Part shown: positions 10,512-13,330 of the stretch, in pieces
How the letters are laid out: each line of letters opens with the position of its first letter
Position numbering within the stretch: the stretch's first letter is position 1
Source: an uncultured Lachnospiraceae bacterium
Lineage (GTDB): Bacteria > Bacillota > Clostridia > Lachnospirales > Lachnospiraceae
Direction of reading: 5' to 3'
Length of the DNA stretch: 13,330 nt
Assembly: GCA_902803245.1 (NCBI GenBank)
Contig: CADCPJ010000181.1
Coordinates: 1 to 13,330, forward strand
Translations under genes and position numbers: made by a program
The notes under the pieces: model-generated
Told to the model about the DNA's origin: nothing
Seen by the model: the letters and a program-made list of their open reading frames with translations, nothing else
The model's database searches: none

Positions 10512-12299
10512 ATGGCGAAAAAAGAAGTTTACGATGCCTCGAGCATCCAGGTGCTGGAGGGGCTGGAAGCTGTCCGCATGCGGCCGGGGATGTACATCGG
10601 CAGCACGTCGAGGAAAGGCCTCAACCACCTGATCTATGAGATCGTCGACAACGCGGTGGACGAGCACCTCGCCGGTTACTGCATGAACATCCGTGTGACG
10701 CTGGAGAAGAACGGCTCCTGCACGGTGTCCGACGACGGGCGCGGCGTCCCCGTGGGAATCCACGAGAAGGGAATGCCCGCGGAGCGGCTGGTCTATACGA
10801 CCCTCCACGCCGGCGGCAAATTTGATAATGACGCGTACAAGACATCGGGCGGACTCCACGGAGTCGGCTCTTCGGTTGTAAATGCGCTCTCCACGGAGAT
10901 GGACGTCATCATAAAGAGGGACGGCGCGATTCATCACGACCATTTCAGGAGGGGCGTGCCGGATCTCGAGCTGGTAGACGGACGCCTGCCGGTCCTCGGA
11001 AAGACGAAAGAGACGGGGACCACGGTGAATTTCATCCCGGATCCTGAGATCTTCGACGTCACCCGCTTCTCGGCGACCGAAGTAAAATCCCGCCTCCACG
11101 AGACGGCCTACCTCAACCCGGAGCTCACGATCTATTTCCGGGATCTGAGGAAGGATGAGGCCGAGGAGCTCGTGTTCCGCGAAAAGGACGGTATCATCGG
11201 ATTTGTCCGTGATATCAATAAAAATGAAGAGACGGTCACGGAGCCTATCTTCATCTCCGGCGAGGATGAGGGAATCGACGTACAGATCGCGATCCAGTAC
11301 GTCAATGAGTTCCATGAAAATGTCATGGGCTACTGCAACAACATCTACAACGCCGACGGCGGCACCCACCTCACCGGCTTCAAGACGGCCTTCACGCAGG
11401 TCATGAACTCCTATGCGAGGGAGATCGGCGTCCTCAAGGAGAAGGATCAGAACTTCACCGGGCCGGATATCCGAAACGGCATGACTGCCGTCATTTCCAT
11501 CAAGCACCCGGATCCCCGCTTCGAGGGACAGACGAAGACGAAGCTGGACAACCCGGACGCGGCCAGGGTCGTGGCGAAGATCGTGGCGGACGAGGCGCCC
11601 CACTTCTTCGACCGGAATCTGGAGACGCTGAAAAACATTCTCTCCTGTGCGGAGAAATCCGCTAAGATCAGGAAGTCCGCCGAGAAGGTGAAGTCGAACC
11701 TGCTGACGAAGCAGAAGTTCGCATTTGACACGAACGGACAGCTCGCCAACTGCATCTTAAGGGACGCGTCAAAGTGCGAGATCTTCATCGTCGAGGGAGA
11801 TTCTGCCGGCGGCAGCGCGAAGACGGCCAGGGACCGCAATTACCAGGCGATCCTCCCGATCCGCGGGAAGATCTTAAATGTCGAGAAGGCGAGTATCGAT
11901 AAGGTGCTGGCAAACGCGGAGATCAAGACGATGATCACCTCTTTTGGATGCGGCTTCTCGGAGGGGTTCGGAAATGACTTCGACATCACGAAGCTCCGCT
12001 ACGACAAGATCATCATCATGGCCGATGCGGACGTGGACGGCGCACACATCGGGACGCTGCTTCTTACGCTGTTCTACCGCTACATGCCGGAGCTCATCTA
12101 TGAGGGGCACGTGTATGTGGCGATGCCGCCGCTCTACAAGGTGATTCCCGCGAAGGGCGAAGAGGAGTACCTCTACGATGACAAGGCTCTCGAGCAGTAC
12201 CGGAAAAGGCATAAGGATAAGAAGTTCACGCTGCAGAGGTACAAGGGCCTCGGTGAGATGGATCCCGAGCAGCTCTGGGAGACGACGCTTAATCCGTAG
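10512..12299 (+). CDS. parE: DNA topoisomerase IV/gyrase B-type subunit, ended early by an in-frame amber codon
   Basis: ATP-hydrolysing subunit of a type IIA topoisomerase, closest in my recollection to the second (ParE-type) Lachnospiraceae copy that starts MAKKE-YDASSIQVLEGLEAVR. The GHKL ATPase domain is intact (Glu43 and Asn47 in EIVDNAVDE, DDGRGVP, GGLHGVGSSVVNALS). The transducer domain includes QTKTKL. The TOPRIM domain has EGDSAGGSA (Glu428) and DADVDGAH (Asp505, Asp507, Asp509). Near the C-terminus QRYKGLGEMDPEQLWETTLNP is followed by TAG at 12297-12299, codon 596, where relatives have Glu (NPETR). The frame then stays open and homologous to 12437. With the stop read as such the protein lacks its last 46 residues. 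The start could be GTG 10488, but ATG 10512 matches the family. No parC follows. Confidence 0.92.
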   Translation: MAKKEVYDASSIQVLEGLEAVRMRPGMYIGSTSRKGLNHLIYEIVDNAVDEHLAGYCMNIRVTLEKNGSCTVSDDGRGVPVGIHEKGMPAERLVYTTLHAGGKFDNDAYKTSGGLHGVGSSVVNALSTEMDVIIKRDGAIHHDHFRRGVPDLELVDGRLPVLGKTKETGTTVNFIPDPEIFDVTRFSATEVKSRLHETAYLNPELTIYFRDLRKDEAEELVFREKDGIIGFVRDINKNEETVTEPIFISGEDEGIDVQIAIQYVNEFHENVMGYCNNIYNADGGTHLTGFKTAFTQVMNSYAREIGVLKEKDQNFTGPDIRNGMTAVISIKHPDPRFEGQTKTKLDNPDAARVVAKIVADEAPHFFDRNLETLKNILSCAEKSAKIRKSAEKVKSNLLTKQKFAFDTNGQLANCILRDASKCEIFIVEGDSAGGSAKTARDRNYQAILPIRGKILNVEKASIDKVLANAEIKTMITSFGCGFSEGFGNDFDITKLRYDKIIIMADADVDGAHIGTLLLTLFYRYMPELIYEGHVYVAMPPLYKVIPAKGEEEYLYDDKALEQYRKRHKDKKFTLQRYKGLGEMDPEQLWETTLNP

Positions 12300-12437
12300 A
12301 CCCGCCGGCTGCGGCGCATCGAGATCGGGGACGCTTCGCTGAGCTCGGATATCACGGATGTGCTGATGGGGACGGATGTCCCGCCGCGGAAGGCGTTTAT
12401 CTATGAGCACGCGAGGGATGCCGAGCTGGATGTGTGA
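12300..12437 (+). pseudogene. In-frame C-terminal remainder of parE beyond the amber codon
   Basis: Directly after TAG the same frame runs 45 codons to TGA. It encodes TRRLRRIEIGDAS, then the family C-terminal blocks DVLMGTDVPPRKAFIYEHA and DAELDV, exactly as expected for the end of the protein. There is no frameshift or gap, so a single G-to-T change (GAG to TAG) explains the interruption. It is translated only if the amber codon is read through or is a sequence error. Confidence 0.85.
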
Positions 12438-12446
12438 CGGCTTTTT

Positions 12447-12563
12447 GACTGGCCCGACGACTGGCCCGGCCAGGGGGCGGAGGATGATCTGCCTTTCGCA
12501 GGAGGGCTGTTTGGGAGGCGGCGCATGAATCTGTGCGTATATCTGCGCGTAAATCTGTATTGA
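12447..12563 (+). repeat. Two short tandem repeats after parE
   Basis: GACTGGCCCGAC and GACTGGCCCGGC are adjacent 12-mers at 12447-12470. Three 12-base units of the form (A/T)ATCTGNGCGTA lie at 12528-12563, the last degenerate. The bases between hold no ORF of note. CTGGCCCGGCCAG (12461-12473) is palindromic but too tight for a terminator. Confidence 0.7.
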
Positions 12564-12571
12564 CGCAGCGT

Positions 12572-12794
12572 CAGACAGTTGTCCTCTCTTCCTTAGAGCG
12601 CTTTTTCGGCTCGTTGATATTTGATTTCAGGACGCTGCTAAAAGCAGTCGGCCGATGAGAAGGGGCTGAGAACTTTCCGTAAGGGATTCTTATTGCATGG
12701 CCCTATGGAGCTTCTCATCGGCCTCCTGACGCAGCGCCCTGAAATCGTCAACTCGCAGCGAAAAAGCTAATGCGTCAGAGAGGACAACTGTCTG
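12572..12794 (+). ncRNA. Candidate structured RNA / hairpin element, copy A
   Basis: Arms at 12572-12589 and 12777-12794 pair perfectly over 18 bp; GCAGCG/CGCTGC (12565-12570, 12796-12801) can extend this after one mismatch. Going inward: an asymmetric loop (12590-12600 against 12767-12776); CTTTTTCG/CGAAAAAG; a loop; GTTGA/TCAAC; a 5:1 loop (TATTT opposite G); GATTTCAGG/CCTGAAATC; CGCTGC/GCAGCG; an 11:7 loop whose left side can form CTGCT-AAA-AGCAG; a perfect 13-bp stem GGCCGATGAGAAG/CTTCTCATCGGCC (12650-12662, 12711-12723); and a 48-base apical loop. Copy B on the other strand shares all of this. I do not recognise the family, and no clear promoter is visible. A DNA-level palindromic repeat is the main alternative. 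Confidence 0.6.
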
Positions 12795-12827
12795 CCGCTG
12801 CTGCAAGCGGCAAGTTTAAGCTATCAG

Positions 12828-12900
12828 ACATGCGTCAAAGTGCTCAGAAAAGACATGCGGCAAGTGCTTCGAAAAGATATGCGCCAAAGTGCTTCGATCG
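12828..12900 (+). repeat. Three degenerate 24-25-base tandem units between the two hairpin elements
   Basis: Units at 12828-12852, 12853-12876 and 12877-12900 share the pattern A(C/T)ATGCGNCAAAGTGCT followed by CAGAAAAG, TCGAAAAG or TCGATCG; the middle unit lacks one A. The octamer AAAGTGCT also occurs at 10351-10358. There are no spacers of the CRISPR kind. The remaining bases between the hairpin elements hold no recognisable gene. Confidence 0.75.
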
Positions 12901-12946
12901 ATCGCTGCGGTATTTGACCTTCAACTTTTGGGAAGCAGCGGGGATT

Positions 12947-13168
12947 GGAGGAAACATCCTCTCTGACGAATTTGCTTTTTCTCATGAGATGGCGATTTTT
13001 CGGCGCTGCGTTAGGAGGCCGATGAGAAGCTCCATAGGGCCGTCCAACGAAAATCCCATAGGGAAAGCTCTCAGCCCCTTCTCATCGGCCGACTGCTCTT
13101 AGCAGCGGTGAAAAATCAAATACCATCGAATAGAAAAAGTTCTCTGAGGAAGAGAGGATGTTTCCTCC
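12947..13168 (-). ncRNA. Candidate structured RNA / hairpin element, copy B
   Basis: Read on the minus strand this is homologous to copy A. The outer arms (12947-12964, 13151-13168) again pair perfectly over 18 bp, but their outer 11 pairs differ from A at nine positions. CTTTTTCT/AGAAAAAG, GATGG/CCATC and GATTTTTC/GAAAAATC replace the A stems with pairing kept. The TATTT:G loop, CGCTGC/GCAGCG, the 13-bp GGCCGATGAGAAG stem (13017-13029, 13078-13090) and a 48-base loop (40 of 48 identical to A) are retained. A and B point toward each other. Minus-strand promoter sequence to the right is not convincing. Confidence 0.6.
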
Positions 13169-13171
13169 GAT

Positions 13172-13330
13172 ACACGCGTCACTTAAGAGCAGAACATATA
13201 ACCGCCGCTTAAAGCCGTCATATAAAACCGCCACCAAACGGCAATCCACCCAAGCGTCACCAAACAGCGGTACTAAAGTGTACCCCTTGTCAAGGACATT
13301 TTTAAAAGCATAAAACCAAAACATAAAGCA
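13172..13330. other. AT-richer right edge without a recognisable gene
   Basis: Short related words recur (ATATAACCGCC / ATATAAAACCGCC; CACCAAACGGC / CACCAAACAGC). A hairpin GGTAC-TAAAGT-GTACC lies at about 13270-13285, next to CCTTGTCAAGG. A minus-strand frame is open from 13324 but resembles no protein I know and runs into copy B. Confidence 0.5.

What the first reader, a model, noticed from the sequence alone, without database searches (positions are those of the whole stretch)
12565..13171. Two inverted ~222-nt elements with conserved fold and compensatory changes
Copies A (+, 12572-12794) and B (-, 12947-13168) each fold into one long branched hairpin closed by an 18-bp perfect stem. Aligned in the same orientation, at least 15 pairs differ at both positions yet still pair: nine in the closing stem, one in CTTTTTCK, two in the GTTGA/GATGG stem, three in the GATTT stem. 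The asymmetric loops (TCCTYAGAG opposite CWAATKCGTC, TATTT opposite G) and the apical 48-base loop are instead conserved in sequence. Paired regions drifting while unpaired ones stay fixed is the signature of a selected RNA or hairpin. I do not recognise the family. Alternative: arm-to-arm correction in a quasi-palindromic DNA repeat could also make matched changes.
Basis: partly seen in the sequence, partly recalled or inferred. Interest (0 to 1): 0.85.

Follow-up and report, generated by a model that had tools for sequence, protein, structure and literature searches.

The report
Paired inverted hairpin repeats, orphan
Next to a DNA-topoisomerase gene of an unnamed bacterium sit two mirror-image copies of a long fold-back DNA repeat whose two arms change in step; they look like a hairpin repeat kept symmetrical mainly by copying one arm from the other, and a new RNA gene is possible but not shown.

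Summary
In detail: two ~222-nt copies (A 12572-12794 +, B 12947-13168 -) each fold into one long hairpin with an 18-bp perfect closing stem. Of 81 consensus pairs, 17 differ on both sides and still pair, 4 differ on one side, 0 are broken. The key inference fails: unpaired columns differ as often as paired ones (15/61, 38/162). No relative was found in Rfam, phages, plasmids, 7 viral-contig scans, 2 genome-contig scans, or covariance-model searches of genus, family, order and class samples, where only the own genome matched. A spurious ORF led to a second contig of the same locus whose protein implies about 7, not 3, copies of the ~25-nt repeat between A and B. In 26 of 29 relatives read, the parC motif lies within 260 nt of parE; here at least 841 nt and an IS end follow. 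Best reading: an orphan pair of fold-back DNA repeats, working like REPIN/ERIC-type hairpins, arms kept matched mainly by template-switch correction (0.45). A selected RNA stays open (0.27). REPIN and MITE membership fail.

The parts
12572..12794 (+). Element A, quasi-palindromic hairpin
12947..13168 (-). Element B, inverted paralogue of A
   Evidence: blastn 83% identity to A over 12957-13158
12582..12784 (+). Core of A (203 nt, ends TCCTCTCT...AGAGAGGA), the part with clear homology to B
12957..13158 (-). Core of B (202 nt)
12572..12581 (+). Outer 10 bp of the closing stem of A, 5' arm; 9 of 10 pairs differ from B on both sides yet pair
12785..12794 (+). Outer 10 bp of the closing stem of A, 3' arm
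13159..13168 (-). Outer 10 bp of the closing stem of B, 5' arm
12947..12956 (-). Outer 10 bp of the closing stem of B, 3' arm
12826..12899 (.). Three head-to-tail ~25-nt repeats in the linker between A and B; the protein read from a second contig (P0001) implies about seven
12438..13278 (.). Stretch between the end of the conserved parE frame and the IS end (841 nt); 26 of 29 relatives read have the parC motif within 260 nt of parE
13279..13330 (.). Terminal part of an insertion sequence, probably IS3-type, cut by the contig end
10488..12299 (+). GyrB/ParE-type topoisomerase subunit gene upstream (context only), ended by an in-frame stop; the conserved frame runs on to 12437

Best explanation
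A and B are two old, inverted copies of a fold-back (quasi-palindromic) DNA repeat lying, with a tandem array and an insertion sequence, between parE and parC. Single-stranded DNA of each copy, for example on the lagging strand, folds back locally. When one arm mutates, DNA synthesis switches template onto the other arm and copies the change over, so the arms drift together and stay Watson-Crick matched. The repeat works like the hairpin repeats of bacteria (REPIN, ERIC): a non-autonomous sequence whose hairpin is what persists. Shown: two paralogous hairpins, matched changes, similar divergence of loops and stems, absence from the sampled relatives, and a second contig whose protein implies a longer array. 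Inferred: arrival as accessory DNA, arm-templated correction as the main cause of the matched changes, and the lack of a dedicated RNA role.
For: 17 double changes, 4 one-sided, 0 broken of 81 pairs. Loops and stems diverge alike (15/61, 38/162), as expected if matched changes arise as readily as single ones. G-U pairs are rare outside the apex (3/134 cells in helices 1-7), and 7 of 17 double changes cannot be reached through G-U intermediates alone (pair types). Several changes come in opposed blocks (columns 37-39 facing 184-188, 57-61 facing 168-170). The local hairpins, not the A:B duplex, are what is preserved, although the minimum-energy fold of the whole region as one RNA pairs A with B instead (181 A-B positions, 0 A-A). 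Only the own genome matched among 42 genus, 299 family, 392 order and 391 class genomes (samples overlap). Other unrelated long hairpins lie in the same spacer in 2 of 29 relatives. Template switching is a published cause of this kind of pattern (PMC8794818: start of abstract and passages), and compensatory changes are reported as common in REPIN hairpins (PMC3116915: passages).
Against: Rates are uneven: 9/10 outer pairs but only 8/71 other pairs changed on both sides (Fisher P 8e-7), and the inner arms carry two facing identical 29-nt runs (two such runs: P 0.001 for random placement; a single one: 0.09, the fairer figure if the arms are coupled). That points to sequence constraint or A-B conversion as well. 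The asymmetric internal loops kept nearly the same sizes. With two copies no event can be polarised. No Y1 (RAYT-type) transposase was found in the own genome, and only two copies were found.
Confidence: 0.45

Rival explanations
1. A and B are paralogous genes for a structured non-coding RNA of an undescribed family, perhaps carried by a mobile element, read convergently (or, from the other strand, divergently out of the repeat-bearing linker).
For: Maintained pairing; a very fast outer stem next to conserved blocks, as in RNAs that need a stem but not its sequence; both strands of the large internal loop conserved, 1/9 and 2/10 columns changed; three apical one-sided changes keep pairs by G-U on the sense strand.
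Against: No Rfam match except three far below the gathering scores (E 0.18-0.83); no homologue in anything searched; no promoter-like site (0 found, shuffles 0.9 on average); loops as a whole no more conserved than stems; the other strand folds slightly better (-119.7 and -110.1 against -113.6 and -101.4 kcal/mol); one transcript through both would favour an A:B duplex.
Confidence: 0.27
2. The whole stretch A - repeat array - B is one fold-back transposon-like element (long inverted arms, tandem repeats in the loop) inserted near parE.
For: Inverted arms 84% complementary over 173 nt; tandem array in the loop, possibly of variable length; a 6-bp direct repeat GCGTCA flanks the composite at 12568 and 13176; no matching element at this place in relatives.
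Against: The 6-bp repeat is expected by chance at P 0.17; the outer ends of the arms are not conserved between A and B; no second copy in the genome; no empty site could be defined, the own spacer not resembling that of relatives by eye.
Confidence: 0.15
3. A and B are the inverted arms of an invertible DNA switch, with the linker as the segment that flips.
For: Long inverted arms with identical 29-nt stretches around a 152-nt linker.
Against: None of the 7 larger window genes scanned in Pfam besides the 110-aa frame looks like a recombinase (DNA beyond the contig end not seen); no promoter-like site in 12400-13330; each arm is itself palindromic with arm-internal matched changes, which a switch does not need; the one further contig known has the linker in the same orientation relative to B.
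Confidence: 0.05
4. Assembly artefact: a chimeric or mis-joined hairpin at a contig end.
For: The contig ends at 13330 inside an IS end, and the genome is a 417-contig draft.
Against: A 590-bp contig in another source encodes a protein that runs from the 3' end of A through the linker into B, with 100% identity over the 45 residues compared, all in B; A and B differ at 35 of 203 core columns, so one is not a mirrored copy made by the assembler.
Confidence: 0.03

Closest known systems
REPIN (REP doublets forming hairpins; PMC3116915)
   Same: Extragenic inverted repeats forming a long hairpin in ssDNA or mRNA; compensatory changes in the hairpin said to be common (passages read).
   Different: [quoted passage not shown] no Y1 transposase found in the 85.8%-complete genome.
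ERIC and related imperfect-palindrome repeats (recalled)
   Same: Intergenic imperfect palindromes with a conserved fold.
   Different: ERIC is 127 bp, enterobacterial and multi-copy (recalled; not compared here by sequence); here a single inverted pair.
Template-switch hairpins (PMC8794818)
   Same: Matched, clustered changes and perfect stems explained by copying one arm from the other (start of abstract and passages).
   Different: The passages treat mainly rRNA with phylogenies; here only two copies, so events cannot be ordered.
MITEs (features recalled)
   Same: Short, non-coding, inverted-repeat structure.
   Different: Ends not conserved between copies, no convincing target duplication, no further copies.

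Membership tests
REPIN | Inverted repeats forming a hairpin with compensatory changes | tested here: met
REPIN | Many copies of a short conserved word in the genome | tested here: not met
   two copies of the element found in the own genome by blastn and covariance model
REPIN | Associated RAYT (Y1 transposase, PF01797) | tested here: not met
   0 matches in the own genome, 85.8% complete; the control rang in 5 of 14 genomes
MITE | Conserved terminal inverted repeats shared by copies | tested here: not met
   in the outer 10 bp, 9 of 10 pairs differ between A and B
MITE | Target-site duplication | tested here: inconclusive
   nothing above chance at A or B; GCGTCA around the composite, P 0.17
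Known structured RNA family | Match to an Rfam model | tested here: not met
   three low-scoring hits in the whole window, E 0.18-0.83, all far below gathering scores; one of them (sR32) overlaps the 3' end of B by 18 nt
New structured RNA family | Covariation across independent homologues | tested here: inconclusive
   17 double changes between two paralogues; no homologues found
New structured RNA family | Transcription | not testable with these tools
   no RNA-seq at hand; a sigma-70 consensus scan found no site
Invertible DNA switch | Inversion of the linker between copies of the locus | tested here: inconclusive
   one further contig, known only from its protein, has the same orientation

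The most novel reading that the evidence does not exclude
The pair is the structured part of an undescribed mobile or regulatory system: two convergent hairpin RNAs or DNA cruciforms around a tandem array of variable length, with a free-to-vary outer stem and a conserved inner stem and internal loop that a protein or partner reads.
Probability: 0.2. Interest if true: 0.65.

Novelty: new variant of a known kind. Interest (0 to 1): 0.38.

Why it matters
Matched changes are usually read as proof of a selected RNA. This pair is a case in which a mutation mechanism may give the same pattern, with loop divergence as a telling control, so it is a useful caution for RNA discovery from few sequences. 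If it is an RNA after all, it would be an undescribed family with two mirror-image copies around a tandem array.

Tried and rejected
Known RNA: Rfam gave three hits in the window, all far below gathering scores. TPP riboswitch (suggested by CTGAGA; the motif is recalled): not among them. Coding: an open 119-residue frame crosses the end of A, the linker and most of B, but its 110-aa part and P0001 have no Pfam domain, and one frame of A that I translated holds three stops. MITE and REPIN: see the membership test. Insertion into a pre-existing palindrome, to explain the unrelated outer stems: undecided, because there is weak similarity beyond the outer stem (banded test, shuffles reaching the score: right side 31 and 23 of 1000, left side 200 and 47 of 1000), while unbanded flank alignments of A and B were not significant (114, 275 and 70 of 500 shuffles).

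More copies were sought by blastn with A in 61 genomes (own only) and with linker, B and the right end in 41 genomes (the own genome, and in two others only the IS end), in phages and plasmids (none), by seven viral-contig patterns (0, 3, 7, 3, 6, 0, 1 hits), two genome-contig patterns (0 and 14 hits) and a pattern with 2 mismatches in 42 genus genomes (2 hits outside the own genome). The 20 viral hits, 14 genome-contig hits and 2 genus hits were all checked with the covariance model R1 at E up to 1, and none matched. R1 was run with stricter filters on samples above 40 genomes; one search repeated the genus with laxer filters on 40 genomes, again own genome only. The samples overlap, and the exact-pattern scans miss anything that varies in the pattern. 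Three protein searches with frames crossing the region: one contig of the same locus, none, and one identical protein listed without a source, as the tool lists the window's own (listed contig 4591 bases, not resolved).

Papers: six searches, three papers opened: PMC8794818 (start of abstract and passages), PMC3116915 (passages), PMC2267715 (abstract and outline). The listings showed no title or abstract start about this sequence; that is no proof of absence in print.

Full report
What is there. Downstream of a GyrB/ParE-type gene (taken as parE because its partner parC follows it in relatives) lie A (12572-12794, +) and B (12947-13168, -), 152 nt apart. Both fold far better than shuffles (z -9.1 and -6.8, 0 of 200 shuffles each). 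Homology between A and B is clear over a 203-column core (83% in blastn; 35 of 203 columns differ).

The matched changes are real. The consensus has 81 pairs: 17 changed on both sides, 4 on one side, 60 unchanged, none broken. Controls: shuffled partners give 8.5 +/- 2.0 double changes (0 of 500 reach 17) and slid partners give 0-2. Both controls share the limit that the structure comes from these two sequences. Nine of the 17 lie in the outermost 10 pairs, against 8 of the other 71 pairs (Fisher P 8e-7).

The argument for RNA is weaker than it was put. Unpaired columns differ at 15/61 and paired at 38/162; leaving out the outer 10 bp, 15/61 and 20/142. The apical 48 bases differ at 8/48. So loops as a whole are not frozen, though the two strands of the large internal loop are well kept (1/9 and 2/10). 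Outside the apex the pairs are nearly all Watson-Crick: 3 G-U cells of 134 in helices 1-7, against 7 of 28 in the two apical helices, which the algorithm itself chose. That G-U makes up roughly a tenth of pairs in typical RNAs is recalled, not measured here. Seven of the 17 double changes are of types (such as C-G to G-C or U-A to A-U) that cannot be reached through G-U intermediates alone (pair types); the other ten could. The other strand gives a similar consensus (72 pairs, 16 double, 3 one-sided changes, against 81, 17 and 4) and folds slightly better, so the data do not pick a coding strand. The minimum-energy fold of 12560-13180 as one RNA pairs A with B (181 positions) and leaves no A-A pair; the differences between the copies put mismatches into that duplex and keep the local hairpins, so what is preserved is the local fold-back.

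Mechanism. Two causes can keep arms matched: selection on a folded molecule, or DNA synthesis that switches template between arms. The second is described for quasi-palindromes and has been proposed for the origin and upkeep of RNA hairpins (PMC8794818, start of abstract and passages). My inference is that it predicts matched changes in opposed blocks, Watson-Crick perfection, and stem divergence no lower than loop divergence; all three are seen. It does not by itself predict the fast outer stem beside slow blocks, nor the two facing identical 29-nt runs in the inner arms (P 0.001 for two such runs at random placement; 0.09 for one, the fairer figure when arms are coupled). These leave room for sequence constraint, conversion between A and B, or a real function. 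I therefore put the DNA reading at 0.45 and the RNA reading at 0.27.

Surroundings. ParE searches hit 40 of 42 genus genomes; 30 loci were returned, one of them the window's own. In the 29 relatives so read, 26 show the parC start motif 41-260 nt after the parE stop; of the other 3, one shows a parC-like start that the motif missed (L023), one ends with its contig (L027) and one gave no stop (L017). Here 841 nt lie between the end of the conserved parE frame (12437) and an IS end at 13279. In blastn against relatives A matched nothing, and 12800-13330 matched only at the IS end; 12438-12564 was not searched separately. The IS end matches G020 (29 nt, 97%), there beside an rve transposase, and G048 (34 nt, 88%), where no transposase frame was seen; the name IS3-type is my reading of the transposase domains. 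The own parC-like fragment lies on another contig, cut at its first base. Two relatives carry other, unrelated long hairpins in the same spacer (L034 3456-3532, L036 1284-1353). Such hairpins are otherwise rare in what was sampled: at score 20 or more and span up to 280, 3 in 102,740 bases of the own genome, one of them the A/B region, and 2 in 129,138 bases of relatives, both in this spacer, which these loci were picked around.

A repeat array. The linker holds three ~25-nt head-to-tail units (12826-12899). A protein search with a frame that crosses linker and B found P0001, predicted from a 590-bp contig in another source. Over the 45 residues compared, all in B, it is identical; read by eye it also matches the end of A and the linker but holds 33 extra residues in the array, that is 99 nt or about four more units. 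This is read from protein; the DNA of that contig was not seen. The locus thus stands in a second contig. The array length may truly vary, or short-read assembly may have collapsed it in one of the two. That the difference is a multiple of three is expected, since only an open frame could be found this way.

No family. Rfam gave nothing near its gathering scores; phages and plasmids nothing; seven viral scans and two genome-contig scans gave 20 and 14 pattern hits, none of which matches the model; genomes of genus (42; 40 with laxer filters), family (299), order (392) and class (391), overlapping samples, gave only the own genome. Metagenome contigs were not scanned.

Comparison. It works like REPIN or ERIC-type hairpin repeats, and REPIN hairpins are reported to show common compensatory changes (PMC3116915, passages). 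It is not a REPIN by two tested features (copy number, RAYT), nor a MITE by its unconserved ends. Filed as a new variant of a known kind.

Noticed in passing
window 12297-12299: An in-frame stop ends the GyrB/ParE-type gene inside its C-terminal domain; the conserved frame runs on to 12437. Intact copies exist in relatives. Could be a sequencing error or a real truncation.
   Followed up: partly
window 13279-13330: End of an insertion sequence, probably IS3-type; the contig breaks inside it.
   Followed up: partly
L034 3456-3532 and L036 1284-1353: Unrelated long hairpins in the parE-parC spacer of two relatives, suggesting that this spacer tolerates or attracts fold-back DNA.
   Followed up: partly
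window 12528-12557: 2.5 copies of a 12-nt tandem repeat just upstream of A.
   Followed up: no
L075 8577-8619: 43-nt hairpin with A and T tails in the same genome, terminator-like.
   Followed up: no
L084 3064-3174: 111-nt hairpin (arm score 20) in the same genome.
   Followed up: no
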